NCBI RefSeq assembly: GCF_001428065.1
Contig: NZ_LMSE01000001.1
Location: 415,417 to 479,416, forward strand
From: Nostocoides sp. Soil756
Lineage (GTDB): Bacteria > Actinomycetota > Actinomycetes > Actinomycetales > Dermatophilaceae
Direction of reading: 5' to 3'
Length of the DNA stretch: 64,000 bases
The number at the start of each line of letters is the position of its first letter. Positions within the stretch are counted from its first letter, which is position 1. The notes beneath the pieces were generated by a model. The model saw nothing but the letters and a program-made list of their open reading frames with translations, was not told the origin of the DNA and made no database searches. Made by a program: the position numbers and the translations under genes. This document shows positions 21,789 to 51,409 of this stretch, piece by piece.

Positions 21789-21864
21789 AACTTTTTCGCC
21801 CGATGCGGCAACCTTCAGCCCGGCACCGGAACCGAAGGGGTGCGAACCCCAAGGTTCCGGTGCC
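21789..21864 (+). repeat. 76-nt post-stop element, copy A
   Basis: The element begins AACTTTTTCGCCC 11 nt after the molybdoenzyme stop, in the same orientation, and ends CGGTGCC. The internal outer stem AACCTT/AAGGTT and inner stem GCACC/GGTGC are both present. The centre (GAACCCC) matches copy B and is not paired. It lies ahead of the sigma factor gene in the same direction, so it could be terminator, 3' UTR structure or inserted element. Confidence 0.85.
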
Positions 21865-21924
21865 GAACGGCCGGCGCGCTCGGGGCCGATGAGTCGGCGG
21901 GTTCCGTACGGTCGGTACCGGTGC

Positions 21925-21940
21925 GGCACCATCCGGTGCC
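21925..21940 (+). promoter_or_regulatory. Leader hairpin before the sigma factor gene
   Basis: GGCACC and GGTGCC enclose ATCC, ending 2 nt before the GAGGAGG ribosome-binding site of the sigma factor gene. It could limit access to the ribosome-binding site. There is no other evidence. Confidence 0.3.
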
Positions 21941-21954
21941 CGAGGAGGCCCCAG

Positions 21955-23025
21955 ATGACGACCACGCCCAGCGACGCGAACGGCACGACCGGCACGACCA
22001 CCGCGGCCCGACCGGCACCGGCCGCGACCGACCCGGCGTTCGACGACGCCGTCACCCGCTACCGGCGCGAGCTCCTCGCGCACTGCTACCGAATGACGGG
22101 CTCGCCGACCGAGGCCGAGGACCTCGTGCAGGAGGTCTACCTGCGGGCCTGGCGGGCCTACGGCTCGTTCGAGGGCCGCTCCTCGCTGCGCACCTGGCTG
22201 CACCGCATCGCCACCAACGTCTGCCTCAGCGCCCTCGAGGGCAAGGAGCGGCGCACCCTGCCCACCGGGCTCGGCGCCCCGTCGTCCTCCGGGGCCGACC
22301 CGCTCGACGAGCGCGTCGAGGTGCCCTGGCTCGGGCCGATGCCGGATGCCGCGCTCACCGGGACGGCCGACCCGGCCGACATCGTGGCCGAGCGCGACAC
22401 CCTGCGCATCGCGTTCGTCGCGGCCCTGCAGCACCTGCCGCCCCGGCAGCGGGCGGTGCTCGTCCTGCGCGAGGTGCTGCGCTGGAGCGCGGCCGAGGTC
22501 GCCGAGGCCACCGGCAGCAGCGTGGCGTCGGTCAACAGTGCGCTGCAGCGGGCCCGCGCCACCCTCGAGGCCGTGGCGCCCTCCCCCGACGCCCCCTCGC
22601 GGCCCGATCTCACCGACGAGCAGCGCGCGCTCCTCGACCGCTACGTCGACGCGTTCTGGCGCAAGGACGTCGAGGCCATCGCGGCCCTGTTCACCGAGGA
22701 CGCCGTCTGGGAGATGCCGCCCTTCGCAGGTTGGTACCAGGGCCCGCGCACCATCGCCGAGCTGGTCGGCACCCAGTGCCCCGGCGGCCGCCACGACATG
22801 CCCCTGGTCGCCACCGACTGCAACGGCCAGCCGGCGTTCGGGCTGTACATGCGCGAGGACGGCCCTGACGGCGACCGCTACCTGCCGTTCCAGCTGCACG
22901 TCCTCGACCTCGAGGGCCCGGCGGTCCGGCACGCCGCGGTGTTCTTCGACACCGCGTACTTCGCGCTGGCCGGGCTCCCCGCCGTGCTCGGCCCCCAGGA
23001 CGTCCCGGGCGGGCCGGAGTCGTGA
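21955..23025 (+). CDS. ECF sigma factor with SnoaL-like C-terminal domain (SigG/SigJ type)
   Basis: This 356-aa sigma factor has region 2 at about 35-105 (LLAHCYRMTGSPTEAEDLVQ, TWLHRIATNVCL) and region 4 at about 160-210 (LPPRQRAVLVLRE, AEVAEATGSSVASVNSALQRAR). A 140-residue SnoaL-like extension (ALLDRYVDAFWRKDVEAI, FTEDAVWEMPP) follows. Such extensions regulate or replace an anti-sigma factor. The ATG is fixed by GAGGAGG. It overlaps a TIGR03086-like gene by 4 nt, a pairing I have seen recurrently for this sigma group. No anti-sigma gene is adjacent. Confidence 0.87.
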   Translation: MTTTPSDANGTTGTTTAARPAPAATDPAFDDAVTRYRRELLAHCYRMTGSPTEAEDLVQEVYLRAWRAYGSFEGRSSLRTWLHRIATNVCLSALEGKERRTLPTGLGAPSSSGADPLDERVEVPWLGPMPDAALTGTADPADIVAERDTLRIAFVAALQHLPPRQRAVLVLREVLRWSAAEVAEATGSSVASVNSALQRARATLEAVAPSPDAPSRPDLTDEQRALLDRYVDAFWRKDVEAIAALFTEDAVWEMPPFAGWYQGPRTIAELVGTQCPGGRHDMPLVATDCNGQPAFGLYMREDGPDGDRYLPFQLHVLDLEGPAVRHAAVFFDTAYFALAGLPAVLGPQDVPGGPES

Positions 23026-23600
23026 CCGTGCGACCCGTCGGCCTCCGGCCCCGGGTCGACGTCGAGCTGCTGGAGCGTTCCCTGGGCTGGGCCCGTGGGG
23101 CGCTGGCGGGTGTGGCCGACGACGAGGCCCCCCGGCCGACGCCGTGCGCCGGATGGGTGCTCGCCGACCTGCTCGTGCACATGGTCGACACCCTCGAGGT
23201 GGTGACCGAGCTGTCGCTGGGCCGGATGGCCGAGGTCGGGCCGCCGCCGACGTCCACGCGGCCGTCGGTGCTGGCCGACCATCTCTCGGTGCTCGGCTGC
23301 GCCCTGCTGGAGGGCTGGCTGCGGGGGCCGCCGCCGGGTGCGTTGGCCGTCGGGGAGCGACGCATCGAGCCGGAGGTGGCGGTGGAGGTGTCGGCCCTCG
23401 AGATCGCGGTGCACGGCTGGGACGTGGCCCGGGCCCGGGGCCTGGCGACGCCCTTCCCGCCGCTGCTGGCGGCCGCCCTGCTGCCGGTGGCCGTGCACCG
23501 GGTGCCGCGGGTCGGGCGGGGGGCCCGTTTCGCCCCGCCGCTCGCCCCGTCGGCCACCGACCCGGCCTCGTTGCTGCTGGCCCACCTCGGGCGCTCGTGA
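23022..23600 (+). CDS. TIGR03086-like / maleylpyruvate-isomerase N-terminal domain protein
   Basis: This 192-aa protein of the DinB-like four-helix superfamily has the family's TPCAGWVLADLLVHMVD near residue 40 and LEIAVHGWDVARA near 125. In related proteins the equivalent His residues bind a divalent metal and act with mycothiol or bacillithiol. GTG start, coupled to the sigma factor stop, so it is made together with it and may be a thiol-stress effector or partner. The biochemical role is unknown. Confidence 0.75.
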   Translation: MTVRPVGLRPRVDVELLERSLGWARGALAGVADDEAPRPTPCAGWVLADLLVHMVDTLEVVTELSLGRMAEVGPPPTSTRPSVLADHLSVLGCALLEGWLRGPPPGALAVGERRIEPEVAVEVSALEIAVHGWDVARARGLATPFPPLLAAALLPVAVHRVPRVGRGARFAPPLAPSATDPASLLLAHLGRS

Positions 23601-23616
23601 CCGGGATGCCGGTCGG

Positions 23617-24501
23617 TCACCGGGGGAGCGGCGCCACGACGAGGCGGACGGCTTCACCCGGGCGCAGCTGGGCCGCGCGGTCGGAGGCGTCCTCGGTGAG
23701 CACCGCCACGACGGGGTAGCCGCCCGTGACCGGGTGGTCCGCGAGGAAGAGCACCGGGCCGCCGTCGGGAGGCAGCTGCACCGCGCCGCGCACCATCCCC
23801 TCGCTCGGCAGCTCGGCGTCGCGCCAGGGGTCGACGCGGGTGACGGCGGCGCCGTGAGGGTCGCTGAGCCGCAACCCGATCCGGTCGCTGTCGGGCCCGA
23901 CGACCCACGTGGGCGCGCTCAACGCGGCGAGGCCACCGACCCAGTCGGTCCGCGGGCCGGGCAGCACCTGGAGCCGGACGGGCCCGGGGGTGGGCGATGG
24001 GTGGGCGGCGGCATCCACCCGCGGGAAGGTCGAGGGGGCAGGCCCCACGGGCAGGATGTCGCCGGCCGCCACTCGCGGCGGCCCCACCCCCGAGAGGGTG
24101 TCGGTCGAGCGGGACCCGAGCACCGGCTCGACGGCGATGCCGCCCCGGACGGTGACGTAGGTGCGGCATCCGGTCGGCGGCGTCCCGAGGGTGAGGAGGG
24201 CGCCGTCGGGCACGTCGAGGAGGGCGTGGTGGGCCACCGGCCGGTCGTCGAGGGCCGCGGGGGCCGGGGCTCCGGTGAGCGCCATCGTGAGCCGGCCGCG
24301 GGCCCGGACCACCAGACCGCCGAGGAGGACCTCGAGGGCGGCCAGGTCCTCGCGCTGCCCGACGAGGCGCGCACCCAGGCGGTGGGCCCCCCGGTCGGCC
24401 GCCCCCGACCGGCCGACGCCGACGGCGGCGTACCCCGGGCGGCCGGTGTCCTGCACCAGGGTCAGCGGGCCGGTGCGCACGACCTCGAGCGCGGGTGTCA
24501 C
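23617..24501 (-). CDS. pxpC: 5-oxoprolinase subunit C
   Basis: This 294-aa biotin-dependent-carboxyltransferase/urea-amidolyase-fold protein has the diagnostic [20 protein letters not shown] near the N-terminus, [12 protein letters not shown] and the C-terminal [31 protein letters not shown]. With PxpA and PxpB it hydrolyses 5-oxoproline (pyroglutamate) to glutamate at the cost of ATP. It is the last gene of pxpABC here, overlapping pxpB by 4 nt. Confidence 0.88.
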
Positions 24502-25232
24502 GGTCGCACCCGCTCGGGACCGGTCGCCGTGAACCGGACGACCGCGCCCGGACGGAGCAGGGCCGGGGGGTCACGCCGGACGTCCCAGAGGGCGGCGTCC
24601 GTCGTGCCGATCAGCTGCCAGCCGCCCGGCGAGGCGCGCGGGTAGACCCCGGAGTATCCGCCGGCCAGGCCCACCGACCCGGGCGGGACCGACGGGCGGG
24701 GTGCGGCTCGGCGGGGCACGGCCAGCCGGGGGTCGCCGCCCACGAGGTAGGCGAAGCCCGGGGCGAAGCCGCCGAAGGCCACTCGCCACGGGGTGCCGGT
24801 GTGGGCGGCCACCACCTCGTGCGCGTCCAGGCCGGTGAGGCGGGCCACGTCGTCGAGGTCAGGGCCGTCGTAGCGGACGGCGATCTCGACCACCGGGTGC
24901 CCGAGGGAGCCGGCGGCGAGCGCGCCCGGCGACGGCTCGAGCTCGGCGGCCAGTCGACGCACGTCGGCCGCGAGGATGTCGAGGCGGCCGCCGTCCGTGA
25001 CGTGGAGCAGCACCGTCCGGGCGGCCGGGACGACGTCGCGCACGGTGGCCCAGGGGCCCGCACCGGCGGCGGCGCAGGCCCGGAACGCGGCGTCGAGAGC
25101 CAGGACGGCGCCGATCTCCGACGTTCCGTCCCCATCGCCATCGCCATCGGCCCGGTCGGCCTCGGGCGCGGCGACCTCGACCAGCAGCGCCCGCTCACCG
25201 GCCGGCAGCAGCCGAACCCCGATGCCGCTCAC
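24498..25232 (-). CDS. pxpB: 5-oxoprolinase subunit B
   Basis: This 244-aa KipI-like subunit has [25 protein letters not shown], and the family signature [11 protein letters not shown] with a GWQLIGTT near the C-terminus. An Asp/Gly-rich insert ([13 protein letters not shown]) near residue 30 is unusual and probably a surface loop. GTG start, overlapping the pxpA stop by 4 nt. It forms the B/C complex that completes pyroglutamate cleavage. Confidence 0.87.
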
Positions 25233-25996
25233 GGCCGGGTGAACGCCTCGAGCCCGATGCCGGCCCGGGCGAGCGCCGTGCGCACCGCCGTCGCCAGCCC
25301 CACCGCGCCCGGGGTGTCGCCGTGGACGCAGACCGACCGCGCCCGGATGCCGACCTCGGTGCCGTCGACGGCGGTGACGACCCCGTCGCGCACCATCCGC
25401 ACGACCCGCTCCGCCACCTCGTCGGGGTCGTGCAGGATCGCCCCGGGCGCGGTCCGGGGCACGAGCCGGCCGTCGGCGTCGTACCCCCGGTCGGCGAACG
25501 CCTCGCCGACCGTGGTCAGCCCCCGCTCGCCGGCCACCCGCAGCAGCACCGACCCCGGCAGCCCGAGCAGGGGCAGGGTCGCGTCGTAGGCGGCCACGGC
25601 ATCCACCACGGCGCCGGCCTGGCCCTCGTCGACGGCGGCCGTCGTGTACAGCGCCCCGTGCGGCTTGACGTAGGCGACGCGGGTACCGGCCACGCGGCAC
25701 ATCGCCTCGAGGGCGCCCAGCTGGTAGAGCACGTCGGCGGTGAGGTCGGCGGCTGCGACGTCCATCCGGCGCCGGCCGAAGCCCGCGAGGTCGCGGTAGC
25801 CGACCTGGGCGCCGACCACCACGCCGCGCTCGGCCGCACGGGCGACGGTGCGCCGCAACGTGGTCGGGTCGCCCGCGTGGAAGCCGCACGCGACATTGGC
25901 GCTGGTGACGACCTCGAGCATCGCGTCGTCGTCGCCCAGCACCCAGGTGCCGAACGATTCGCCGAGGTCGGCGTTGAGGTCGATGTCGAGACTCAC
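25229..25996 (-). CDS. pxpA: 5-oxoprolinase subunit A
   Basis: This 255-aa LamB/YcsF-family protein opens with [11 protein letters not shown] and has [21 protein letters not shown] and [10 protein letters not shown]. It is the component that activates 5-oxoproline. GTG start; TAGCGT lies 7 nt upstream, suggesting a leaderless transcript for the whole pxpABC operon. It is divergent from a PPOX-fold gene with only 54 bp between the starts. Confidence 0.9.
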
Positions 25997-26050
25997 CGTG
26001 CCGACGCTACCGGCCGCGGGTCGCGCCCGCCGCGGCCGTAGCCTGGGCGT

Positions 26051-26479
26051 ATGGAGCCCTCGCGCCATCCGTTGGCCACCGCGAAGTACGTGCAGCTGAC
26101 GACGTTCCGCCGCAACGGCACACCGGTCGCGACGCCGGTGTGGGTCGCGCCGGCCGCCGACGGCTCGGAGCACCTGGTCGTCATCACCGTCGACGACACG
26201 GGCAAGACCAAGCGGCTCGGGCACACCTCGCGCGTCGAGCTGCGCCCGTGCGACATGCGCGGGCGGGTGGCCGAGGGGGCGCCGAGCTACCGGGGCGAGG
26301 GTGCGGTCGTCCGGGATGCCGCGGAGGTGGCGGCGGTGCGCGCGGCCGTGGTCGCCAAGTACGGGCTGCCGGCGCGCTTCTCGGACCTGGTCGACGCGGT
26401 GACCTCGCGCGTCGGCATCCGGCGGGCGGCGCGGGCCGGCATCCTGCTCACCGTCGAGCCCACGCCCGTCGGCGCCTGA
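26051..26479 (+). CDS. PPOX-class (F420-type) oxidoreductase
   Basis: This 142-aa split-barrel flavin/F420-binding protein has TTFRRNGTPVATPVWVAP near the N-terminus, KTKRLGHTSRVELRPCD and a C-terminal helix with KYGLPARFSDLVD. It resembles small F420H2-dependent reductases of actinobacteria (TIGR03666 group, recalled). The substrate is unknown. TAGCCT ends 6 nt before the ATG and no Shine-Dalgarno is present, so it is probably leaderless. Confidence 0.78.
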   Translation: MEPSRHPLATAKYVQLTTFRRNGTPVATPVWVAPAADGSEHLVVITVDDTGKTKRLGHTSRVELRPCDMRGRVAEGAPSYRGEGAVVRDAAEVAAVRAAVVAKYGLPARFSDLVDAVTSRVGIRRAARAGILLTVEPTPVGA

Positions 26480-26510
26480 GCGGCACGCACCCTCCCCGAG
26501 ACCCCGGTTC

Positions 26511-26569
26511 GTCAGGGTCACCCCGCTTTCGAACCGGGGTGACCCTGACATTTCGGGGTGACCCCGAAA
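26511..26569. terminator. Two adjacent perfect palindromes, probable bidirectional terminator
   Basis: A 15-bp perfect inverted repeat (GTCAGGGTCACCCCG and its complement, 9-nt loop, 26511-26549) is followed at 26551-26569 by TTTCGGGGT-G-ACCCCGAAA. The two share the word GGGGTGACCC, so each arm can pair in more than one way. They lie between the converging PPOX and cspA genes. T and A runs flank the second hairpin, giving it terminator character in both directions. Confidence 0.6.
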
Positions 26570-26596
26570 AGCTGGGAGGGGCGGTGGGAAACGCAC

Positions 26597-26627
26597 GACC
26601 GCCGCCCGGCGAGGCCGGACGGCGGTC
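26597..26627 (-). terminator. cspA terminator hairpin
   Basis: Outer arms GACCGCCG/CGGCGGTC and inner arms CCGGC/GCCGG form a near-continuous stem with a GAG loop. It is positioned 35 nt after the cspA stop on the minus strand. Confidence 0.6.
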
Positions 26628-26661
26628 ATGAGGTGCGCCCGAGGGCGCGGGGGGTCTCAGG

Positions 26662-26865
26662 TCAGAGAACGGTGATGTTCGCGGCCTGCGGACCCTTGGG
26701 GCCCTGCTGGGTCTCGTACTCGACCTTGGCGTTCTCGTCGAGCGAGCGGTACCCGCTGGAGTTGATGGCCGAGTAGTGGGCGAAGACGTCGGCGGAGCCG
26801 TCGTCGGGGGCGATGAAGCCGAAGCCCTTCTCGGCGTTGAACCACTTCACGGTGCCAGTAGCCAT
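26662..26865 (-). CDS. cspA: Cold shock protein
   Basis: This 67-aa single CSD protein binds single-stranded RNA/DNA and prevents RNA structure. RNP1 is KGFGFIAPD and RNP2 is [20 protein letters not shown] leads. Length is standard. The ATG giving MATGTVKWF is the usual start; an in-frame ATG 36 codons upstream lies inside the untranslated leader and is rejected. It stands alone between convergent and divergent genes, with a long leader and its own terminator. Confidence 0.95.
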
Positions 26866-27010
26866 GTTGGCCTTCTTTCCGGGTGGGCGCTCCGCGTGTC
26901 GGAGTCGCCCGGCGTTGGTGATGCTTGCTGCGTACCTCTGATCGGAAAGTGCCTCGGGCCCCGGCGGGGCCATGCTGCTACTACGTCACAACGGAAAGCT
27001 CAACAACTGG
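26866..27010 (-). promoter_or_regulatory. Long cspA leader with candidate promoter
   Basis: On the minus strand, TTGTTG is followed after 17 bp by TAGTAG, and then by about 110-120 nt before the ATG. The leader holds a stable hairpin (GGCCCC-GCC-GGGGCC). Long structured leaders are typical of cold-shock genes and often act as thermosensors, but this one is only predicted. Ribosome-binding site: GGAAAGAAGG. Confidence 0.4.
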
Positions 27011-27043
27011 TGACGAGCGTAGCGGGTCCTGGCGAGATCCGCC

Positions 27044-27463: not shown

Positions 27464-27541
27464 GCGCCCATGGTGGCGCACCGTCGAACCTCGTGGTGGC
27501 GGGGTCGCCGCCCCGGGCCGGGCGCGACTAGCGTGGAGGAC

Positions 27542-29021: not shown

Positions 29022-30116
29022 ATGAGCGCAGCGGCCGAGGTGTCCGTCCCGTGGGGGCAGGCGCTGGCGTGGCGGCTCGGGCGGCAGCTGCTCGACCCGG
29101 TGGGGTCCGCGTCGGCGGCCGACGTCGTGCGCCGGCTGGGAGCGGTCCCCTCGATGGACGAGTCCCTGGCCGAGCTGGCCGTGCGGACCCGCTGCACCAC
29201 CTCGCGCCCCGGCGAGCTGGCTCGGGCGCTGACGGCCGGGACCGTCGTGAAGGTCTTCGCCTTCCGGGGCGCCGTGCACTACCTCTCGGCCGAGGACGGC
29301 GGGATGTACCTCGCGCTGCGCGCCGCGGGCCGCCAGTGGGAGCGCACCAGCTGGGTCGAGTACTACGGGCTGACGCCGCAGGCCTGGCCCGACTTCCGCG
29401 CGGCCGTGCGCGAGGCGCTGACCGACGGTCCGCTGACGGTCGGCGAGCTGGGCGAGGCGCTGGCGGCGCACCCCGAGTACCGGCACCTGGTGCCGGTGTT
29501 CGAGGAGGGTGCCGGCACCCTGGTGAAGCCGCTGACCTGGCAGGGCGACATGGGGTTCGCGGCGCCGCGCGACGGGCGGGCGACGTTCCAGCGCCTCGAC
29601 ACGAACCCGCACTGGCGCGGCATCCCGCTGCTGGAGGAGGCCGGGCCGCGGGCGGTCGAGGCGTACCTGGAGGCGTACGGTCCCGCGACGCGCGACGCCC
29701 TCCACCACTGGCTGGGCGACGGGCTCAGCGCCGGGACGCGGCGGATCGACGGCTGGCTCGCGGGCCTGGCCGACCGCGTGGTCGAGGTCGACGTCGAGGG
29801 CACGCCCGCACTGCTGCTGCGCGACGACGTGGACGACCTGCTGGCGACCGAGCCGTCGGATGCCGTGCGCCTGCTGCCGGGGCACGACCCGTGGGTGATG
29901 GGGCCGGGGACCCAGGACGAGCACGTCGTGCCCGCGGCGCGGCGCGAGGCGATGACCCGCAAGGCCAACCCCGTGCTCGAGGGCGGGGTGGTGCGGGGGA
30001 CCTGGACCCGGCGTGGGGACGAGGTCAGAGTGACGTGGCTCGACGGCCGGCCGCGGCCCGTCGCCGCGATCGCGCGGGAGGTCGAGCGGCTGGCCGGCAT
30101 CCTCGGGGACGGCTAG
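29022..30116 (+). CDS. Winged-helix DNA-binding protein, AlkZ-like (HTH_42)
   Basis: This 364-aa protein has the tandem winged-helix pattern of the AlkZ/YcaQ group: LAWRLGRQLLDP near residue 15, VKVFAFRGAVHYLSAEDGGMYLALR, ATRDALHHWLGDG, and the C-terminal LLPGHDPWVMGPGTQDEHVVP. Some members unhook DNA interstrand crosslinks as glycosylases, but the paired Gln catalytic motif is not evident here. A repair or regulatory role is therefore open. Its TAG stop abuts the far end of a 76-nt repeat. CAGGGT lies 6 nt upstream of the ATG. Confidence 0.75.
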   Translation: MSAAAEVSVPWGQALAWRLGRQLLDPVGSASAADVVRRLGAVPSMDESLAELAVRTRCTTSRPGELARALTAGTVVKVFAFRGAVHYLSAEDGGMYLALRAAGRQWERTSWVEYYGLTPQAWPDFRAAVREALTDGPLTVGELGEALAAHPEYRHLVPVFEEGAGTLVKPLTWQGDMGFAAPRDGRATFQRLDTNPHWRGIPLLEEAGPRAVEAYLEAYGPATRDALHHWLGDGLSAGTRRIDGWLAGLADRVVEVDVEGTPALLLRDDVDDLLATEPSDAVRLLPGHDPWVMGPGTQDEHVVPAARREAMTRKANPVLEGGVVRGTWTRRGDEVRVTWLDGRPRPVAAIAREVERLAGILGDG

Positions 30117-30191
30117 GCACCGGGACCTTGGGGTTCGCACCCCTACCGAAGCGGTGCGAGGGTGAAGGTTCCCGCAGGGGGCGAAAAAGTT
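30116..30191 (-). repeat. 76-nt post-stop element, copy B
   Basis: On the minus strand it begins AACTTTTTCGCCC 10 nt after the crtU stop. Its far end touches the last base of the converging winged-helix gene, so it fills the whole intergenic gap. It differs from copy A at about 12 of 76 positions by hand alignment. Confidence 0.85.
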
Positions 30192-30201: not shown

Positions 30202-31835
<1,634 letters not shown>

Positions 31836-37540: not shown

Positions 37541-38794
37541 GTGGATGCGGACGTCGTCGTCGTCGGGGCCGGGCTGGCGGGGCTGCGGTGTGCCGACCGG
37601 CTGGCCGAGGCCGGGCGGCGGGTCGTCCTGCTCGAGCGCGACGACGTGGTGGGGGGGCGCCAGCGCACCGACGAGGTCGACGGGTTCCTGCTCGACCGGG
37701 GCTTCCAGGTGCTCAACCCCGCCTACCCGGCCGTCCAGCGCTGGGTCGACGTCGACGACCTGGCCCTGCGGCCCTTCGGAGCCGGGCTGCTGGTCCGCCG
37801 GGCGCGCGGCCTGGTCGCGCTGACCCATCCGCTGCGCTCGCCCCGCGGGGTGCCGGCCACGCTGCGCAGCGGGCTGCTGCGCCCGCGCGAGCTGGGAGCC
37901 CTGGCCCGCTGGGCCGCCCCTGCCATCGCCCGCCCACGCGCGGTCGTCACCGGGCCCGACCGCACGGTGCGCGAGGGGCTCGACGCGGCCGGGGTCACCG
38001 GGCCGCTGCGCACGGAGGTGCTCGAGCCGTTCCTGGCCGGCGTGGTGGCCGAGGACCGGGGCGAGACCTCCGAGGCCTACGTGCGCCTGCTGGTGCGGAT
38101 GTTCGCACTCGGCGTGCCGGGGCTGCCGGCCCGCGGCATCGGGGCGCTGCCGGCCTGGATGGCCGACCGGATGACCCGCCGTGCGCTGGCCCCCGAGGTG
38201 CGGCTCTCGGCCGGGGTGGTGGGCGTCCGGGCCGGGGCCGAGCCCGGTGTGGAGTGCCTCGACGGGACGAGCCTGACGGCCCGCGCGGTCGTGGTGGCGG
38301 TCGGGCCGGAGGCCGTGGCCGGGCTCGTCGACGTGGCCGCCCCGCGGACGCGTGGCCTGCGGACCTGGTGGTTCGCGGCCCCCGAGGCCCCGACCGACTC
38401 CGACCTGGTCGTGGTCGACGGGCGGCGCCGCGGGCCGATGGTCAACGCGGCCGTCGTCAGCAACGCCGTCCCCTCCTACGCCCCGCCGGGCCAGCACCTG
38501 GTGCAGGTCACGACGCTGCTGGGCGACGGCGCCGACCCCTCCGAGGACGACGTGCGCCGCCAGGCCGCCGAGGTGTTCGGGCGCCCCACCACCGCCTGGC
38601 GCACCATCCGCCGCGACGACGTCTTCGACGCCCTGCCCGCCCAGCCGGCGCCGCTGCGCGTCACCTCGCCCGCCCGGGTCGCCGCCGGGGTCTACGTGGC
38701 GGGCGACCACCGCGACACCGCCAGCATCCAGGGCGCGCTGGTCTCGGGGCACCGGGTCGCCGGCGTCGTGCTGGCCGACCTGGGCGCGGCGTGA
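37541..38794 (+). CDS. FAD-dependent amine-oxidase/protoporphyrinogen-oxidase-like oxidoreductase
   Basis: This 417-aa flavoprotein starts with VVVVGAGLAGLRCADRLAEAG, then DDVVGGRQRTDEVDGFLLDRGFQ, and ends with VYVAGDHRDTASIQGALVSGHRVA, the FAD-closing motif. It belongs to the same superfamily as CrtI but is shorter and nearer to protoporphyrinogen-oxidase-like proteins. Its stop overlaps the photolyase start by 4 nt and it is divergent from the crt operon, so a role in carotenoid modification or light protection is likely but unproven. GTG start with TACGGT 6 nt upstream, likely leaderless. Confidence 0.75.
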   Translation: MDADVVVVGAGLAGLRCADRLAEAGRRVVLLERDDVVGGRQRTDEVDGFLLDRGFQVLNPAYPAVQRWVDVDDLALRPFGAGLLVRRARGLVALTHPLRSPRGVPATLRSGLLRPRELGALARWAAPAIARPRAVVTGPDRTVREGLDAAGVTGPLRTEVLEPFLAGVVAEDRGETSEAYVRLLVRMFALGVPGLPARGIGALPAWMADRMTRRALAPEVRLSAGVVGVRAGAEPGVECLDGTSLTARAVVVAVGPEAVAGLVDVAAPRTRGLRTWWFAAPEAPTDSDLVVVDGRRRGPMVNAAVVSNAVPSYAPPGQHLVQVTTLLGDGADPSEDDVRRQAAEVFGRPTTAWRTIRRDDVFDALPAQPAPLRVTSPARVAAGVYVAGDHRDTASIQGALVSGHRVAGVVLADLGAA

Positions 38795-40281
38795 GCGGCC
38801 TCCGGCTGCGCCTGGTCTTCCCGCACCAGCTGTTCGAGGCGCTGCTCGACGAGCCCGCCGGCACCCGGTTCGTCCTGGTCGAGGACGACCTGCTGTTCCG
38901 CCACCAGCCCGTGCACGCCCAGAAGCTGGTGCTGCACCGGGCCTCGATGCGCCTGTTCGCGACGCGGCTGCGGGAGGCGGGCTTCGCGGTCGACGTGGTG
39001 GAGACCGACGCCGCCGCGCCCACCGGCGAACGACTGACGGCCCTGGTGGCGGCGCTCGCGCCGTCCGAGGTGCGCGTGTACGACGTGGTCGACGACTGGC
39101 TGCTGCGCGACACCCGGGCCGCCCTGGCCGCCGCCGGGGTCGAGCTCGCGCCCGAGGACGTCGACGAGACACCGAGCTTCTTCTGCACCCGCCCCGAGCT
39201 GGCCGCGTGGTTCGGCGAGCACCGGGCCCGGATGCAGACCTTCTACCAGTGGCAGCGGCGCCGGTTGGACGTGCTCGTCGAGGGCCCCGAGCACGACCGG
39301 CCCGTGGGCGGTCAGTGGTCCTACGACCCCGAGAACCGCAAGAAGCTGCCGAAGGGGCACCGGGTGCCGTCGCGCCGGCCGGTCGAGCGGCTGCCCGAGG
39401 TCGACGAGGCCGTGGCCTGGGTGGGCGAGGCGTTCCCGGACGCGCCCGGCCGGGCCGACACCTTCGACTGGCCGGTCACCCACGAGCAGGCCCGGGCCGG
39501 GCTGCGGGAGTTCGTCGACGAGCGGCTCTCGCAGTTCGGGCCCTACGAGGACGCCGTGGCCACCGCGCATCCGTTCGTCTTCCACGCGGCCATCACCCCG
39601 GCCCTGAACTGCGGGCTGCTCGACCCCCGCGAGGTGCTCGAGACCGTGCTGGCCGCGGCCGAGGAGCACGACGTGGACCTGCCCTCGCTCGAGGGGTTCG
39701 TGCGCCAGCTCATCGGCTGGCGCGAGTACATGCGGGCCACGTACCACCTCTACGGGCGGCGGATGCGGACGTCGAACCACCTGGGGCACACCCGGTCCCT
39801 GGCGCCGGGCTGGTGGGACGCCGGCACCGGGCTCGACCCCGTCGACCACGTCGTGCGGGGGGCGCTGGAGCGCGGGTACGCCCACCACATCGAGCGGCTC
39901 ATGGTGCTGGGCAACGCGATGTGCCTGCTGCGCACCGACCCCGACGAGGTCTACGCGTGGTTCATGGCGCTCTTCGTCGACGCCTACGACTGGGTGATGG
40001 TGCCCAACGTCTACGCGATGTCGCAGTTCGCCGCGGGCACGGGCATCACGACCAAACCGTACGTCTCGGGCAGCAACTACCTCAGGACGATGACCGACTT
40101 CGGCACCGGCCAGTGGCGTGACGACTGGGACGCCCTCTACTGGACCTTCGTCGCCGACCACCGTGAGGTGTTCGAGGGCAACGTGCGGGCCCGGATGGTG
40201 ACGCGCACGTGGGACGGGATGGACCCGGGCCGGCGCGACGAGCTGCTGGCGCGCGGCCGCTCCGCCATCACCCGCCTCTGA
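38791..40281 (+). CDS. Photolyase/cryptochrome of the FeS-BCP lineage, cluster ligands absent
   Basis: This 496-aa flavoprotein resembles deoxyribodipyrimidine-photolyase-related (PhrB/CryPro) proteins: RLVFPHQLFEALLD at the N-terminus, VRQLIGWREYMRATYHLYG, AHHIERLMVLGNAMCLL, DAYDWVMVPNVYAMSQFA and TKPYVSGSNYLRTMTDF. In the family the last motif continues into CxxC and a later ACPF that hold a [4Fe-4S] cluster. Here it reads FGTGQWRDDWDALYW (437-451). Only three Cys exist in the whole protein, none in the ligand positions. It would repair UV photoproducts or act as a light sensor. GTG start coupled to the FAD oxidoreductase. Confidence 0.82.
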   Translation: MSGLRLRLVFPHQLFEALLDEPAGTRFVLVEDDLLFRHQPVHAQKLVLHRASMRLFATRLREAGFAVDVVETDAAAPTGERLTALVAALAPSEVRVYDVVDDWLLRDTRAALAAAGVELAPEDVDETPSFFCTRPELAAWFGEHRARMQTFYQWQRRRLDVLVEGPEHDRPVGGQWSYDPENRKKLPKGHRVPSRRPVERLPEVDEAVAWVGEAFPDAPGRADTFDWPVTHEQARAGLREFVDERLSQFGPYEDAVATAHPFVFHAAITPALNCGLLDPREVLETVLAAAEEHDVDLPSLEGFVRQLIGWREYMRATYHLYGRRMRTSNHLGHTRSLAPGWWDAGTGLDPVDHVVRGALERGYAHHIERLMVLGNAMCLLRTDPDEVYAWFMALFVDAYDWVMVPNVYAMSQFAAGTGITTKPYVSGSNYLRTMTDFGTGQWRDDWDALYWTFVADHREVFEGNVRARMVTRTWDGMDPGRRDELLARGRSAITRL

Positions 40282-40285
40282 GCCC

Positions 40286-40361
40286 AACTTTTTCGCCCCC
40301 TGCGGGAACCTTGACCCCAGCACCGCAACGGTGGGGGTGTGATCCTGAAGGTTCCGGTGCC
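40286..40361 (+). repeat. 76-nt post-stop element, copy C
   Basis: It begins AACTTTTTCGCCC only 4 nt after the photolyase stop, same orientation, and ends CGGTGCC. The outer stem AACCTT/AAGGTT and inner GCACC/GGTGT-like stem are retained. It is followed within 8 bp by a 12-bp tandem repeat array. Confidence 0.85.
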
Positions 40362-40368
40362 CACCCCT

Positions 40369-40428
40369 TCGCGAGCCCCGTCGCGAGCCCCGTCGCGAGC
40401 CCCGTCGCGAGCCCCGTCGCGAGCCCCG
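40369..40428. repeat. 12-bp tandem repeat, five perfect units
   Basis: TCGCGAGCCCCG is repeated exactly five times. Each unit contains the palindrome TCGCGA. It lies between the 76-nt element and the gnd ribosome-binding site. It is in phase with an open frame that would give a Ser-Arg-Ala-Pro repeat, but gnd starts further down, so I read it as non-coding. It is probably prone to copy-number change. Confidence 0.9.
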
Positions 40429-45946: not shown

Positions 45947-45987
45947 GCCGGGCCGAAGGGCGCGGCATCCTGGCCGGACGACCACCA

Positions 45988-46063
45988 CGCACCGGGACCT
46001 TCACCTCGGCACCGCAACGGAAGTGGTGCCGGCGTGAAGGTTCCCGCATCGGGCGAAAAAGTT
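45988..46063 (-). repeat. 76-nt post-stop element, copy D
   Basis: Minus orientation, beginning AACTTTTTCGCCC 8 nt after the SNF2 helicase stop. A long hairpin is possible, with A23 to C39 pairing with G51 to T67 apart from a 2-nt internal loop (element numbering). The far end has one change (CGGTGCG). Confidence 0.85.
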
Positions 46064-46071
46064 GTCGGGGC

Positions 46072-49000
46072 TCAGCCGGAGAGGAGGCCGCGCAGGTCGT
46101 CGGCGGTCAGGGCCGAGCTCATCGCCGCGCCCTCGTCCACCACCCGGGCGAACAGGTCGCGCTTGCGCTCCTGCAGCGCGACGACCTTCTCCTCGACGGT
46201 GTCGCGCGCCACCAGGCGGTAGACGTTGACCGGCCGGGTCTGCCCGATGCGGTGGGCGCGGTCGATGGCCTGGGCCTCGGCCGCGGGGTTCCACCACGGG
46301 TCGAGCACGAACACGTAGTCGGCCTCGGTGAGGGTGAGCCCGAAGCCGCCGGCCTTGAGCGAGATGAGGAACACCGGGGCGTCGCCGTCGCGGAAGGCGG
46401 CGATGCGGTCGGCGCGGTCGCGGGTGCGGCCGTCGAGGTACTCGTAGGCGATGCCCTCGGCCGCCAGCCGCTCGCGCACGACGCCCAGGAAGCCCGTGAA
46501 CTGCGAGAACACCAGGGCCCGGTGCCCCTCGCCGGCGAGCTCGGCCACGTGCTCGACCAGCGTGTCGACCTTGGCCGAGGTCGCCAGCCCCGCGTACTCG
46601 GGGTCGACCAGCGCCGGGTCGAGCGCCATCTGCCGCAGCGCCGTCAGCGCGCGCAGCACCGCCATCCGGTTGCCGTCGAGGTCGTCGATGAGCCCGAGCA
46701 GCCGCTGCCGCTCGCGCTGGAGGTGCCGGTCGTAGACCGCCCGGTGGCGCGGGTGCAGGTCGACGGTGAGGATCTGCTCCTGCTTGGGCGGCAGCTCGGT
46801 GGCCACCGCCTCCTTGGTGCGGCGCAGCATCAGCGGCCGGATGCGGCGGCGCAGCGTGGCCAGCCGTTCGCTGTCTCCGTCGCGCTCGATGGGGTTGGCC
46901 CACTGCTCCTTGAACGCGCCGGGCCGGGGGTGCAGCCCGGGCGCGACGATCGAGAGCAGCGACCAGAGGTCCATCAGCGAGTTCTCGAGCGGGGTACCGG
47001 TGATCGCGAACTTGGCCCGGGCGCTCAGCCGGCGCACCGCCTGGTAGGTCTTGGCCTGGTGGTTCTTGACGAACTGCGCCTCGTCGAGGACGACCGCCGC
47101 CCACGGCCGCGAGCGCCACGCCGCCTCGTCGATGCGCGCCACGGTGTAGGACGTGATGACCAGCTGGGCGCCGTCGATGGCGGCCTCGAGGGAGCGCCCG
47201 TCCTTGCCGCGGGTCCGCTCGACCACCGCGGTCTTCAGGCTGGGCGCGAACCGCGCGGCCTCGCCCGCCCAGGTCGAGAGCACCGAGGTCGGGGCCACGA
47301 CCAGCACCGGATGCTCGAGCTCGCCGCGCTCCTGGGCCCGCAGCACCATGGCCAGCATCTGTACGGTCTTGCCCAGGCCCATGTCGTCGGCCAGCACCCC
47401 GCCGAGCCCGGTGTCCCAGAGCAGCGACAGCCACCGGAAACCGTCGACCTGGTACGGGCGCAGCGTGGCATCGAGGCTCGCGGGCACCTCGGCCGGCTCG
47501 ACCCCGGTGCCGTCGACCAGCCGGCCCACGGTGGTCTGCCAGCGCTCGCTCTGCTCGTCGACCACGCCCAGGTTCGCGAGCTCCTCCCACAGCCCGACGT
47601 GCACCGCCGAGATGCGCAGCGGGTCGCTGGGCTTGTCCTGCAGTGAGCGCGCCTCCTCGACCAGCCGGCGCAGCGACTCGAGCTCGGGGCGGTCGAGCGA
47701 GAACCAGGTCCCGGAGTCGAGGATGAGGTGCGGGTGCCGGCGGGCCAGGGCCTCGATGAGCGGCGCCAGGGGCACGTCCTCGCCGCCGACGGTGACCGAG
47801 ATGCCGAGGTCGAACCAGTCGGTGGCGCCCGGGCCGCCGCGGGACTCGGTGGCGGACACCTGGATGAGCGGCGCCTCGTCGGTCTCGCTGTAGTCGGCGA
47901 CCTCGCCCACGACGGTGACGTCGAGGTCGGGCAGCTCCTGGAGGATGGGCAGCACGTGGCTGAAGCCCACCGTGGTGAAGCCGTGCAGGCGGGTCTCGGG
48001 CACCAGGCGCGGCTGCTGCCCCACGACCTGCCAGAGCACGGCGAACCCGGCGACCTCGGGCACCGCGCGCAGGGCCTCGACCAGCCGCCGCTCGGCGCCG
48101 CGGTCGCGCATCGGGTCGGGGTCGTCGGGGCCCAGCGGCACGTGCACCCCGGACGGGCCGCCGTAGCGGTAGCCCCAGCGCAGGTGGGTTTGGTGCCCGG
48201 GCTCGGCGGTGACGGTGAGGTCGAGCCGCGGCGGGACCGCCTCGGGCAGGTCGAGCCGCGGCGAGAGGCTGCGCACGTGCGCCTTGCGGCGCAGCCCCGG
48301 CAGGTGGGTGACGGTGAAGCGCGCCCAGTCAGCCTCGGGGACCTCGATGGTGCCGAGGTCGAGGAGGCGCTGGCGGGTGGCGTCGAGCGGCTCGGCCAGC
48401 GAGCCCAGCACCAGGGTGTCGTCATCACGCAGCCAGAACCCGGTGGCGGGCGAGCCGACCAGGTGCGTGGTGGTGCCGGGGGTGACGGGCAGGTCGAGGT
48501 GGGGGTGCAGGGCGGCGCCGTCGTCGGTGCGGTCGATGTCGACGACGAGCTCGGCCGGCTCGGGCGCGAACGCCACGCGGCCCTCGCCGGTGAGGTCGGC
48601 CAGCAGGCGCACCCCGGCGCGGTCGGCGGCGCGCAGCAGGCCGACCCACCCGGCCCCGAGGTGGTCGAGCAGGATGGCGTCGGGCATCCGGCCGTACCCG
48701 AAGGCGCGCACCGAGCGGCGGTGGGCGTCGGCGACGGCGGTGAGGGCGTCGCGGTGCTCGTCGGGGAAGGTCACCTTCCCGAAGCCGTAGTAGCCACCCG
48801 CGAAGGTCTCCCAGGACACTCCGCTGCGGATCCAGGCGCCGCGCACGCCGGGCACCACCGGGCGCAGCCGCAGCTGGGCCCGGCCGGTGTCGTCGGCCAG
48901 GCGCGCGCGACCGCCGGCGGGGCGGGCGGGCTCGATGAGCAGCCCGACGGGGGTGGTGTCGACCGGGCGGTCGTCGTCGAGGAGGCCGCCGAGCGCCTGC

Positions 49001-49392
49001 TCCCAGGTGGGCCGAGGCGAGGGGCCCCCGGCGGCCGCCCGGGCGGCGTCCGGCATCGCGGGCTCGCGCTCGCGGACGGCGACGGCGACGGCGACGGCGT
49101 GCTTGCAGTCGCTCCCGACGGGGCAGGAGCACTGGCTGTACCAGCGGCGCAGGGGGCGGCGGGCGGAGGTCTCCCCGGTGGGGCGCAGGGTGACCTGGGT
49201 GGTGTAGGTCTGGCCGGCGCTTCCGCCGACCCAGCCGGTGGCGTCGGTGCCGTCGGGGGAGACCTCGACGTCGACGACGCGCCCCTCCTTGGCGTAGGCG
49301 AGCCCGCGAGCGACGGTGACGGTGCCGCACAGCTCGCCGAGGGTGCGGTTGGTGAGCGCGGCGAGGCGGTCGACGCCGACGACCCGTGCCAT
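46072..49392 (-). CDS. SWIM zinc finger SNF2-family helicase
   Basis: This 1106-aa protein has an N-terminal SWIM zinc finger (CSCPVGSDCKHA at about 88-99) and a long middle region without clear motifs. The C-terminal 500 residues form an SNF2 ATPase: DDMGLGKTVQ as Walker A, VVLDEAQFVKN, ITGTPLENSLMDLWSL, then ALVFSQFTGFL, SLKAGGFGLTLTEADYV and DPWWNPAAEAQAIDRAHRIGQ. Such proteins translocate on DNA and remodel protein-DNA complexes; bacterial members act in repair or transcription. Stand-alone gene. The last 35 residues are a possible coil (VVALQERKRDLFARVVDEG). Confidence 0.88.
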   Translation of the reverse strand: MARVVGVDRLAALTNRTLGELCGTVTVARGLAYAKEGRVVDVEVSPDGTDATGWVGGSAGQTYTTQVTLRPTGETSARRPLRRWYSQCSCPVGSDCKHAVAVAVAVREREPAMPDAARAAAGGPSPRPTWEQALGGLLDDDRPVDTTPVGLLIEPARPAGGRARLADDTGRAQLRLRPVVPGVRGAWIRSGVSWETFAGGYYGFGKVTFPDEHRDALTAVADAHRRSVRAFGYGRMPDAILLDHLGAGWVGLLRAADRAGVRLLADLTGEGRVAFAPEPAELVVDIDRTDDGAALHPHLDLPVTPGTTTHLVGSPATGFWLRDDDTLVLGSLAEPLDATRQRLLDLGTIEVPEADWARFTVTHLPGLRRKAHVRSLSPRLDLPEAVPPRLDLTVTAEPGHQTHLRWGYRYGGPSGVHVPLGPDDPDPMRDRGAERRLVEALRAVPEVAGFAVLWQVVGQQPRLVPETRLHGFTTVGFSHVLPILQELPDLDVTVVGEVADYSETDEAPLIQVSATESRGGPGATDWFDLGISVTVGGEDVPLAPLIEALARRHPHLILDSGTWFSLDRPELESLRRLVEEARSLQDKPSDPLRISAVHVGLWEELANLGVVDEQSERWQTTVGRLVDGTGVEPAEVPASLDATLRPYQVDGFRWLSLLWDTGLGGVLADDMGLGKTVQMLAMVLRAQERGELEHPVLVVAPTSVLSTWAGEAARFAPSLKTAVVERTRGKDGRSLEAAIDGAQLVITSYTVARIDEAAWRSRPWAAVVLDEAQFVKNHQAKTYQAVRRLSARAKFAITGTPLENSLMDLWSLLSIVAPGLHPRPGAFKEQWANPIERDGDSERLATLRRRIRPLMLRRTKEAVATELPPKQEQILTVDLHPRHRAVYDRHLQRERQRLLGLIDDLDGNRMAVLRALTALRQMALDPALVDPEYAGLATSAKVDTLVEHVAELAGEGHRALVFSQFTGFLGVVRERLAAEGIAYEYLDGRTRDRADRIAAFRDGDAPVFLISLKAGGFGLTLTEADYVFVLDPWWNPAAEAQAIDRAHRIGQTRPVNVYRLVARDTVEEKVVALQERKRDLFARVVDEGAAMSSALTADDLRGLLSG

Positions 49393-49566
49393 CGCGGACC
49401 TCCTCGCAGGGTTGTGCCACCGCCCGGTACCGGCGACCCGAACACCCGAGCGTACGTCGCCGCGACGACATCCGTGGAACTCCTCCACAGGGTCGCCGGC
49501 CGGCCGGAGGGTTCCTCGGGGTGCCCTGGAGACGCTGCCCCGGTGTCGTGACGCTGGGTGCAGCCG

Positions 49567-50139
49567 TCACGCGGGGGCGCGCAGCCCCGCGACGAGCAGG
49601 GCGACGAGCGAGCGGGCGTCGTAGCGCGGGTCGTCGCCGGCCCCGATGCACAGGTTGCCGACCCCGCGCAGCACCCCGTAGGCGCCGATCTCCGACGTGA
49701 CCTCGCCGGCGTCCCTGGCCGCGTCGAGGAGCCGGCCGCAGACCGGGACGAGCCGGTCGACGAAGTACGTGTGCAGAGCGGAGGAGGACGGGTCGTCGGC
49801 CCGGATCGCCTCCGCCAGACCGTGCTTGGTCACCAGGAAGTCGACGAAGAGGTCGAGCCAGCGGGCTAGGGCCTCGCCCGGGCTGTCGTGCTCTGCGAGG
49901 AGGGCCGGGCCGGCGTCGGCACACGTCTCCACCTGATGCCGGTAGACCGCCACGACCAGGTCGGCGCGGGTGGGGAAGTGCCGGTAGATCGTGCCGACCC
50001 CCACGCCCGCCCGCGCTGCGACGTCGCGCACGGGGACATCGACGCCCGACGCCACGAACGCGGCCGCCGCGGCCTCGAGGAGGGCCGCTTCGTTGCGCCG
50101 GGCGTCGGCCCGTTTGCGCGTGCTCCCGACCTCGCTCAT
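49567..50139 (-). CDS. TetR-family repressor
   Basis: This 190-aa regulator has an N-terminal HTH (VRDVAARAGVGVGTIYRHFPTRADL at about 37-61) and an all-helical ligand domain with WLDLFVDFLVTKHGL. ATG preceded by GGAGGCGG. Divergent from an aldo-keto reductase gene; a perfect 17-bp palindrome lies between, so it probably represses that gene and itself. The ligand is unknown. Confidence 0.87.
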   Translation of the reverse strand: MSEVGSTRKRADARRNEAALLEAAAAAFVASGVDVPVRDVAARAGVGVGTIYRHFPTRADLVVAVYRHQVETCADAGPALLAEHDSPGEALARWLDLFVDFLVTKHGLAEAIRADDPSSSALHTYFVDRLVPVCGRLLDAARDAGEVTSEIGAYGVLRGVGNLCIGAGDDPRYDARSLVALLVAGLRAPA

Positions 50140-50168
50140 CGGACCGCCTCCTGGAGTGGGTGGACAAA

Positions 50169-50185
50169 ACGGAACATTGTTCCGT
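50169..50185. promoter_or_regulatory. 17-bp perfect palindrome, likely TetR operator
   Basis: ACGGAACATTGTTCCGT, 30 bp from the TetR start and about 88 bp from the aldo-keto reductase start. A degraded second copy (ACGGAACGCAGATCCGGT) follows at 50195-50212. Two tandem sites in a divergent gap are typical of TetR autoregulation. Confidence 0.65.
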
Positions 50186-50273
50186 ATCATCTAAACGGAA
50201 CGCAGATCCGGTATGGCGGAGTATGCCAGGGCGCCGGGTCCGCCACCATCCCCCACCCTCGGAAGGACCGCAC

Positions 50274-51293
50274 ATGCAGTACCGCACCCTCGGCACCACG
50301 GGCATCCGGGTCAGCGCCCTCGCGCTCGGCACGATGAACTTCGGCGCCCTCGGCCGGACCACCCAGAAGGACGTCACCGCCCTGGTCGACGGCGCCCTCG
50401 CGGCGGGCATCACGCTCGTCGACACCGCCGACGTCTACTCCGGCGGCCAGTCCGAGGAGATGCTCGGGCGGGCGCTCGCCGGCCGCCGCGACGACGTGGT
50501 GCTGGCGACGAAGGCCGGCCTCCCGATGGGGGAGGACCCGGCCCGTCGTGGTGCCTCCCGCCGGTGGCTCGTGCAGGCGCTGGAGGACAGCCTCCGCCGG
50601 CTCGGCACTGACCACGTCGACCTGTACCAGGTGCACCGCTGGGACCCGACCACGAGCGACGAGGAGACCCTCGCGGCGCTCACCGACCTCCAGCGCGCGG
50701 GCAAGATCCGCGCCTTCGGGTCGTCGACCTATCCCGCCGACCGCATCGTCGAGGCGCAGTGGGCGGCCCGGGAGCGCGGACTCGGACGGTACGTGACCGA
50801 GCAACCGCCGTACTCGATCCTCCAGCGGGGGGCGGAGGCGCACGTGCTGCCCGTCGCCGAGCGGTACGGGCTCGGGGTGCTGGCCTGGAGCCCGCTCGCC
50901 TCCGGCTGGCTCTCCGGCGCCGTTCGGGCTGGGCACGAGGTGAGGACGAACCGCTCGGGCTTCATGCCGGCCCGGTTCGACGTGAGCCAGCCGCACAACC
51001 GGGCTCGGCTCGACGCGGTGGAGCGGCTGGTGGCGGTGGCGGATGCGGCCGGGCTGACGATGGTCCAGCTCGCACTGGGGTTCGTCACCGCGCATCGCGC
51101 CGTCACCGCCGCTCTCATCGGCCCACGCACGACCGAGCACCTGGGCTCGCAGCTCGCGGCCGCCGACACGGTCCTCTCCGCCGATGTGCTCGACGCCGTC
51201 GACGAGATCGTGGCCCCCGGCCTCGACCTCGCGCCGGGTGAGCGCAACGACACCCCGCCGTCGCTCCTGGACGCCGCCCTGCGCCGGCGCTGA
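50274..51293 (+). CDS. Aldo/keto reductase
   Basis: This 339-aa NADPH-dependent reductase has TIM-barrel motifs with catalytic Asp/Tyr in DTADVYSGGQSEE, Lys in LATKAGLP and His in QVHRWDP. SSTYPADRIVEAQW, WSPLASGWLSG and the C-terminal ALIGPRTTEHL complete the AKR pattern. It reduces aldehydes or ketones; the substrate is not readable. ATG preceded by GGAAGGA. Likely induced when the neighbouring TetR binds its ligand. Confidence 0.88.
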   Translation: MQYRTLGTTGIRVSALALGTMNFGALGRTTQKDVTALVDGALAAGITLVDTADVYSGGQSEEMLGRALAGRRDDVVLATKAGLPMGEDPARRGASRRWLVQALEDSLRRLGTDHVDLYQVHRWDPTTSDEETLAALTDLQRAGKIRAFGSSTYPADRIVEAQWAARERGLGRYVTEQPPYSILQRGAEAHVLPVAERYGLGVLAWSPLASGWLSGAVRAGHEVRTNRSGFMPARFDVSQPHNRARLDAVERLVAVADAAGLTMVQLALGFVTAHRAVTAALIGPRTTEHLGSQLAAADTVLSADVLDAVDEIVAPGLDLAPGERNDTPPSLLDAALRRR

Positions 51294-51333
51294 CCCCACC
51301 GCGGCCGGTGGTGCTCGACGGGTGCCCGGGTCG

Positions 51334-51409
51334 GGCACCGCAACCTTCAGCGAGACACCCCTACCGTTGGGGTGCCTCGCTGAAGGTTCCCGCACCGGGC
51401 GAGAAAGTT
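51334..51409 (-). repeat. 76-nt post-stop element, copy E
   Basis: Minus orientation, beginning AACTTTCTCGCCC (one T to C change) 6 nt after the aminotransferase stop. This copy has the best hairpin: AACCTTCAGCGAG pairs fully with CTCGCTGAAGGTT, and CACCCC with GGGGTG, around AACGGTA. It lies in the gap where the aldo-keto reductase and aminotransferase genes converge. Confidence 0.85.

What the first reader, a model, noticed from the sequence alone, without database searches (positions are those of the whole stretch)
21789..51409. Five copies of an oriented 76-nt element placed just after stop codons
Copies at 21789-21864(+), 30116-30191(-), 40286-40361(+), 45988-46063(-) and 51334-51409(-) are each exactly 76 nt with no gaps. 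They share AACTTTTTCGCCC (one C-for-T change in copy E), then TGCGG, AACCTT, GCACC, GGTG, AAGGT and CGGTGC. Every copy begins 4-11 nt downstream of a stop codon and in the same orientation as that gene; the genes are unrelated (molybdoenzyme, crtU, photolyase, SNF2 helicase, aminotransferase). Fixed length, orientation and distance argue against random insertion. They suggest a 3'-end RNA element (terminator, stability or localisation signal) or a mobile element that targets 3' ends. I know of no named family matching it.
Basis: seen in the sequence. Interest (0 to 1): 0.85.

Follow-up and report, generated by a model that had tools for sequence, protein, structure and literature searches.

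The report
Genome-specific hairpin repeats after stop codons
A short DNA repeat that folds into a hairpin sits just behind the stop codons of unrelated genes in this bacterium; related bacteria carry their own versions of it, sometimes behind the very same genes, so it is probably a spreading repeat that cells use to end or protect their messages.

Summary
The five copies are real (none in 100 shuffles), each starting 4-11 nt after a stop codon in its gene's direction. They belong to a dispersed repeat: 23 sites in this genome, and matches in 51 of 186 genomes of the family, 17 of 53 genera. The unit is an imperfect palindrome: a 5' tail, ACTTTYYCGCC, then a hairpin of fixed geometry, in one-sided (about 76 nt) and two-sided (89 nt) forms. 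Pairing covaries across dialects. In this genome 14 of 17 one-sided copies start 0-15 nt after a codirectional stop, against 6% by chance. Sequence is genome-specific: the nearest neighbour is in the same genome for 124 of 146 copies. Yet some slots recur across genera (gyrB, mdh), and behind one stop codon a sister species has an unrelated repeated palindrome instead. Best reading: a REPIN-like spreading palindrome, co-opted as the 3'-end hairpin (termination or mRNA protection) of the gene before it. No RAYT-type transposase was found (0 of 15 genomes), and the window gave no Rfam match. Function is inferred; nothing here measures RNA.

The parts
21789..21864 (+). Copy A, one-sided element, 11 nt after the stop of an FdhF/YdeP oxidoreductase gene (19360-21777 +)
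   Evidence: ortholog in G006 (L099) keeps the element although the downstream gene differs
30116..30191 (-). Copy B, one-sided element, 10 nt after the stop of an FAD-enzyme gene (30202-31740 -); its far end touches the stop of the convergent gene 29022-30116
   Evidence: ortholog L027 in G006, 97% identical over the element; same slot filled in G004
40286..40361 (+). Copy C, one-sided element, 4 nt after the stop of a weakly photolyase-like gene (38791-40281 +); next gene is 6-phosphogluconate dehydrogenase, same strand
   Evidence: ortholog L025 in G006; its own RNA fold is no better than shuffles (z 0.08)
45988..46063 (-). Copy D, one-sided element, 8 nt after the stop of an SNF2-helicase-like gene (46072-49392 -); convergent with a class II fumarase gene
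   Evidence: at this stop codon G006 has an unrelated palindrome (family 2) instead
51334..51409 (-). Copy E, one-sided element, 6 nt after the stop of an aminotransferase-type gene (51416-52792 -); near-perfect hairpin
   Evidence: RNA fold z -6.74; ortholog L076 in G006

Best explanation
The copies belong to a family of non-coding, non-autonomous palindromic repeats that spread within each genome, roughly as REPINs do, and are retained where they lie just behind a stop codon. There the transcript carries a short tail (ACUUUYYCGCC), which puts the base of the hairpin about 19-27 nt past the stop, followed by a long GC-rich hairpin. The hairpin most likely serves as the 3' end of the upstream gene's message: a U-tract-poor terminator and/or a block to 3' exonucleases. 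Two-sided copies would serve both strands. SHOWN: the repeat, its geometry, covariation across dialects, orientation, spacing to stops, dialects, slot sharing and slot swapping. INFERRED: transcription, termination or stabilisation, and spread by an unidentified enzyme.
For: Position: 14 of 17 one-sided copies of this genome within 0-15 nt after a codirectional stop (6% expected); 37 sense to 12 antisense in tandem gaps. Covariation of the palindrome in 62 copies from five genomes: 204 double-changed cells against 97.7 in shuffles, 0 of 500 as high. In 14 G000/G006 ortholog pairs the element changes less (tail 5.0%, arms 7.7% and 10.7%) than the next 30 nt (24.7%). The element stays with the upstream gene where the downstream gene differs (A). 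Slots recur across genera: gyrB in 5 genomes, mdh in 5. At mdh most of the 30 genomes read carry a strong hairpin behind the stop, the element being one of several kinds. Spreading: nearest neighbour in the same genome for 124 of 146 copies (18% expected); tandem arrays in G009. Streptomyces terminators are reported to be long, stable hairpins with few U (PMC12207403, passages).
Against: No RNA data. No U-tract behind the hairpin; the terminator scan names none of the five hairpins (its one hit at copy B uses a short stem over the stop codon). The gyrB-gyrA copy lies 20-36 nt before gyrA, where a full terminator would be odd, and five congeners lack it there. Between G000 and G006 changes do not preserve pairs (13 pairs lost, 14 gained, 8 kept, 9 unpaired in both), and within G000 alone the pairing signal is weak (73.7% against 70.3%). 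Copy C folds no better than shuffles. No enzyme that could move it was found (one search tested one family). In G009 only 2 of 18 one-sided copies obey the stop rule.
Confidence: 0.6

Rival explanations
1. Purely selfish miniature element (MITE- or REPIN-like) whose enzyme prefers gene 3' ends or existing terminator hairpins; the hairpin has no use to the cell, and slots recur because they are insertion hot spots.
For: Genome-specific dialects, tandem arrays in G009, near-identical copies in G021, losses in G006 at the L009 and L015 sites, long inverted repeats in two-sided copies. At mdh same-slot copies of distant genomes are no more alike than different-slot copies, as repeated insertion would give.
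Against: The element changes about as slowly as coding DNA and far more slowly than the next 30 nt. The gyrB copy keeps 79-82% identity between G000, G083 and G085, well above different-slot copies. Sense orientation. No target duplication was recognised at the two sites without an element in G006.
Confidence: 0.2
2. Not mobile at all: an ordinary terminator/3'-end RNA signal whose copies are kept alike within a genome by co-evolution with a shared RNA- or DNA-binding factor (and gene conversion).
For: Slot recurrence across genera, conserved tail although it is unpaired in one-sided copies, slow evolution, position rule.
Against: Only 23 sites in a 3.47-Mb genome, tandem arrays, absence at the same slot in close relatives, replacement of D by an unrelated palindrome.
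Confidence: 0.15
3. DNA-level site (cruciform or protein-binding palindrome, e.g. for chromosome organisation) rather than an RNA signal.
For: Two-sided palindromes; five of 23 sites within 30 kb; a copy in the gyrB-gyrA gap.
Against: Spacing and sense orientation to stop codons; few copies; sequence differs strongly between related species.
Confidence: 0.05

Closest known systems
REP sequences / REPINs with RAYT transposases (PMC3116915, PMC3733652; passages)
   Same: Extragenic palindromes with an unpaired conserved motif at one end; single and mirror-image double forms; several families per genome and genome-specific families; mostly between codirectional or convergent genes.
   Different: No GTAG or CGTC tag at the hairpin foot; no Y1/RAYT gene in 15 genomes including five with many copies; one hairpin of 76-89 nt rather than 20-40-bp units; tens of copies, not hundreds; closely tied to stop codons; slots recur across genera.
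MITEs
   Same: Two-sided copies have long terminal inverted repeats, 89 nt, no coding capacity.
   Different: No target duplication recognised, no parent transposon known, and most copies sampled are one-sided (99 of 144 by a loose rule).
GC-rich actinobacterial intrinsic terminators (Streptomyces Term-seq, PMC12207403; passages)
   Same: Long stable hairpin shortly behind the stop codon, with few or no U behind it.
   Different: These are dispersed repeats with a conserved 5' tail and a genome-specific sequence; termination was not measured.
Integron attC sites (recalled, no call)
   Same: Imperfect palindrome just behind a gene's stop, in the gene's orientation.
   Different: Copies stand singly on the chromosome beside housekeeping genes; one-sided copies have no GTT-type right end; the box RYYYAAC is not general.

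Membership tests
REP/REPIN with RAYT | RAYT / Y1 transposase (PF01797) in genomes that carry the repeat | tested here: not met
   0 of 15 genomes, among them G000, G006, G009, G004 and G021; the control search finds it in 5 of 14 known genomes. G083 and other rich genomes were not searched.
REP/REPIN with RAYT | GTAG or CGTC tag beside the stem | tested here: not met
   By eye on alignment A4: the conserved unpaired motif is ACTTTYYCGCC; tag definition from PMC3733652.
REP/REPIN with RAYT | Two conserved ends as inverted repeats with a variable palindromic middle | tested here: met
   Two-sided copies, e.g. C2:637904-637992 and C6:106026-106114; conserved ends, variable middle; only a minority of copies have this form.
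MITE | Target-site duplication at an empty-site comparison | tested here: inconclusive
   Two sites lack the element in G006 (L009, L015); neither shows a duplication; one looks like a deletion in G006.
MITE | Parent transposon with the same ends | not tested
Intrinsic terminator | GC-rich hairpin behind the stop codon | tested here: met
   but copy C folds no better than shuffles and copy B only slightly better.
Intrinsic terminator | U-tract directly behind the hairpin | tested here: not met
   Scan of 21500-52900 finds no hairpin of the five elements with a T-run behind it.
Intrinsic terminator | RNA 3' ends at the hairpin | not testable with these tools
   No RNA data.
Any Rfam family | Score above the curated threshold | tested here: not met
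   0 in the window. Five related loci were scanned at a loose threshold: 7 matches, all below their gathering scores.
Integron attC | RYYYAAC ... GTTRRRY boxes (recalled) and integron integrase | tested here: not met
   Boxes read by eye: present in some copies (C), absent in others (A); one-sided copies lack the GTT end. Integrase not searched.

The most novel reading that the evidence does not exclude
Gene 3' ends in this bacterial family act as refillable slots: an unidentified machinery writes a genome-specific hairpin behind particular stop codons, so the same slots (mdh, the SNF2-like gene of copy D, a polyprenyl synthase gene) are refilled with a new dialect, or with an unrelated palindrome family, while the flanking genes stay about 94-98% identical.
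Probability: 0.22. Interest if true: 0.85.

Novelty: new variant of a known kind. Interest (0 to 1): 0.62.

Why it matters
If right, it is a REP-like repeat population without the RAYT enzyme thought to drive REPs, tied to stop codons in sense orientation, with recurring slots but genome-specific sequence. That makes two open questions testable: what spreads short palindromes in bacteria that lack RAYTs, and whether repeats supply the 3' ends of messages in GC-rich bacteria whose terminators lack U-tracts. The gyrB-gyrA copy offers one well-understood operon for a first experiment.

Tried and rejected
RAYT/REP membership: not met, PF01797 0 of 15 genomes. An unusual C<->G exchange between copies as a special process: rejected, because C<->G also dominates coding differences between G000 and G006 (166 of 273). 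Two-sided copies enriched between convergent genes: not supported (18 of 38 against 32 of 86, p=0.32). G-U against A-C asymmetry as a sign of sense RNA folding: mixed; outer pairs for (97 to 6 in one-sided copies), inner pairs against (79 to 122). Model R1 from RNAalifold kept only 2 pairs; R2 with the palindrome that I named was used for the family. Matches outside the family (9 of the 20 matching genomes of 396 in the order, 23-35 bits): by eye none shows the whole element; left uncounted and unresolved. Plasmids: no match; phages: two unverified faecal 'Bacteriophage sp.' scaffolds at 78-80% identity, not analysed further. IMG/VR: 0 exact matches for two patterns. Literature searches: nothing listed describes such a repeat in this bacterial family; I saw listings with the starts of abstracts, and passages only of PMC12306157, PMC3733652, PMC12207403 and PMC3116915. 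The library lacks most subscription journals.
Full report
OBSERVATION. The five 76-nt copies are at the stated places. The head pattern finds these five and nothing in 100 shuffles. Distances from stop codon to first base are 11, 10, 4, 8 and 6 nt.

THE FAMILY IN THIS GENOME. AACTTTTTCGCCC with up to 1 mismatch occurs 21 times in the 3.47-Mb genome; the reversed control pattern occurs 0 times. A model built from these copies gives 32 matches. I count 23 sites: 4 two-sided sites give two matches each, and 5 further matches are weak antisense readings of sites already counted. Five of the 23 lie within 30 kb of this window. Upstream genes include gyrB (read from its sequence), mdh and purA (above the NCBIfam cutoffs), fragments matching valS and aceE (cut by the locus ends), an inorganic pyrophosphatase and a polyprenyl synthase.

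ANATOMY. Positions 1-13 are the tail. Positions 16-41 pair with 49-74 around a 7-nt loop centred on position 45. Two-sided copies end in a mirror-image tail at 77-89, e.g. C2:637904-637992 and C6:106026-106114. One-sided copies often share a right end GGTGC at 71-75: 12 of 17 in G000, 7 of 10 in G006, 10 of 11 within one mismatch in G083, but 0 of 14 in G021 and 0 of 8 in G141; 29 of 99 exactly over all. Two-sided copies fold at -81 to -83 kcal/mol, z -10 to -12 (2 of 2 tried); the seven one-sided copies tried range from z -6.9 to 0.08. On 62 copies from five genomes the palindrome has 204 double-changed cells against 97.7 in shuffles (0 of 500 as high) and 78.6% of cells paired, against at most 46.2% with the partner slid. 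In the 21 G000 copies alone it is 73.7% against 70.3% in shuffles (9 of 500 as high).

POSITION. I sampled 145 copies from 11 genomes (one duplicate dropped; 99 one-sided, 45 two-sided by a loose rule that allows 3 mismatches in the second tail). Of the 99 one-sided copies, 86 have both neighbours called: ++ 37, +- 32, -- 12, -+ 5. In tandem gaps 37 are sense and 12 antisense (p=0.0005). In G000, 14 of 17 start 0-15 nt after a codirectional stop; random placement in the window's 25 gaps gives 6% (p=5e-15). Over all one-sided copies it is 42 of 99, and G009 is an exception (2 of 18). Genes came from my codon-usage script, not from annotation. Distances peak at 4 and at 9-11 nt. Sites were taken from the best pattern and model matches, so this is not a random sample.

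SPREAD AND DIALECTS. With R1, 5 of 39 genomes match, own genome included; with R2, 51 of 186 genomes of the family and 17 of 53 genera (at most 25 candidates per genome scored, strict filters, so counts are lower bounds). In 396 genomes of the order 20 match, 11 of them in this family; the other nine score 23-35 bits. The nearest neighbour of a copy (hairpin part) is in its own genome for 124 of 146 (18% expected; G000/G006, G021/G141 and G083/G084 were treated as pairs and the partner genome's copies left out; both halves of two-sided sites and array copies were kept, which raises the figure). G009 has tandem arrays with periods of about 96 and 172 nt.

SLOTS. The gyrB-gyrA gap holds an element in G000, G006, G004, G083 and G085. 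Reading the gap in 30 genomes (one had no gyrA on its contig) adds G005, G007 and a variant in G009; five congeners (G001, G002, G003, G010, G011) have a gap of 49-66 nt without it, and several other genera have other palindromes there. On a 23-row gyrase tree the element needs three changes. The mdh slot is filled in G000, G004, G009, G084 and G085 and by another subfamily in G006; most other genomes among the 30 read carry other hairpins there. Same-slot copies at mdh are no more alike (48-62%) than different-slot copies of the same genomes (50-66%); at gyrB they are (79-82%), except against G004 (43-51%).

G000 AGAINST G006. Of the 23 sites, 14 have an orthologous element. D has the unrelated palindrome family 2, itself dispersed in both genomes (26 pattern matches each, reversed control 0 and 1). 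The mdh and L014 slots have the AAACCCCGGGGTCGCA subfamily, which with up to 1 mismatch occurs at three places in G006 and nowhere in G000; the third lies 1.2 kb from mdh and might be the L005 slot, but the L005 flank was not found in G006. L009 is absent, L015 looks deleted, L017 gives way to unrelated sequence, L021 is a remnant, L095 was not found. In the 14 pairs the element differs less (tail 5.0%, 5' arm 7.7%, loop 4.1%, 3' arm 10.7%) than the next 30 nt (24.7%); coding is 6.2%. Only recognisable elements could be compared, which favours low figures, and changes did not preserve pairs (13 lost, 14 gained, 8 kept, 9 unpaired in both). In the window D is among the most changed gaps although its flanking genes are about 98% identical.

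MECHANISM. The simplest account joining these facts: a palindrome that multiplies within genomes by an unknown enzyme (not a PF01797 transposase in the 15 genomes searched), landing or surviving best just behind stop codons in sense orientation, where its RNA hairpin ends or protects the message. Tail plus spacer keeps the hairpin base about 19-27 nt from the stop; E. coli REPs within 15 nt of a stop are reported to stall ribosomes (PMC12306157, passages), so the tail may spare the terminating ribosome. That step is inference. Against simple termination stands gyrB-gyrA, where gyrA starts 20-36 nt behind the element; attenuation or processing is likelier there.

NOVELTY. It works much like a REPIN but fails two defining tests of REPs (tag, RAYT), so I do not file it as one. 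I rate it a new variant of palindromic extragenic repeats.

Noticed in passing
window 58427-58477; G000 and G006, e.g. L180, L189, L194: A second dispersed palindrome, CGAACGTGTGTGAAGAAC..GTTCTTCACACACGTTCG, with 26 pattern matches in each of G000 and G006 and 8 in G083; a diverged copy lies in this window between divergent genes. It fills the copy D slot in G006.
   Followed up: partly
window 40364-40428: Five tandem copies of a 12-mer CCCCGTCGCGAG directly behind copy C; the gap is 93 nt shorter in G006.
   Followed up: no
window 26480-26661: Convergent gap with several strong hairpins, one of them (CCCCGGTTCG..) replaced by a different one in G006 while TTTCGGGGTNACCCCGAAAA is kept.
   Followed up: no
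L298, L299, L302, L304, L305 and others (gyrB-gyrA gap of other genera); L335, L338, L343 (mdh slot): Hairpins with GTATGCCG..CGGCATAC arms recur at both slots; in the gyrB-gyrA gap some enclose a GTTYCACGTGRAAC-like core that recalls parS (parS consensus from memory).
   Followed up: no
G009 contigs C35 (54595-55240) and C139 (15476-16064): Tandem arrays of the element with periods of about 96 and 172 nt.
   Followed up: partly
L142:1497-1596 (G093): A two-sided element scores 40.9 bits (threshold 50, E 9e-6) against the Rfam mraW RNA family; chance or distant kinship not resolved.
   Followed up: no
L356 (MT836558.1) and L357 (MT838223.1): Two unverified 'Bacteriophage sp.' scaffolds from human faeces hold stretches 78-80% identical to copy E; possibly bacterial DNA.
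   Followed up: no
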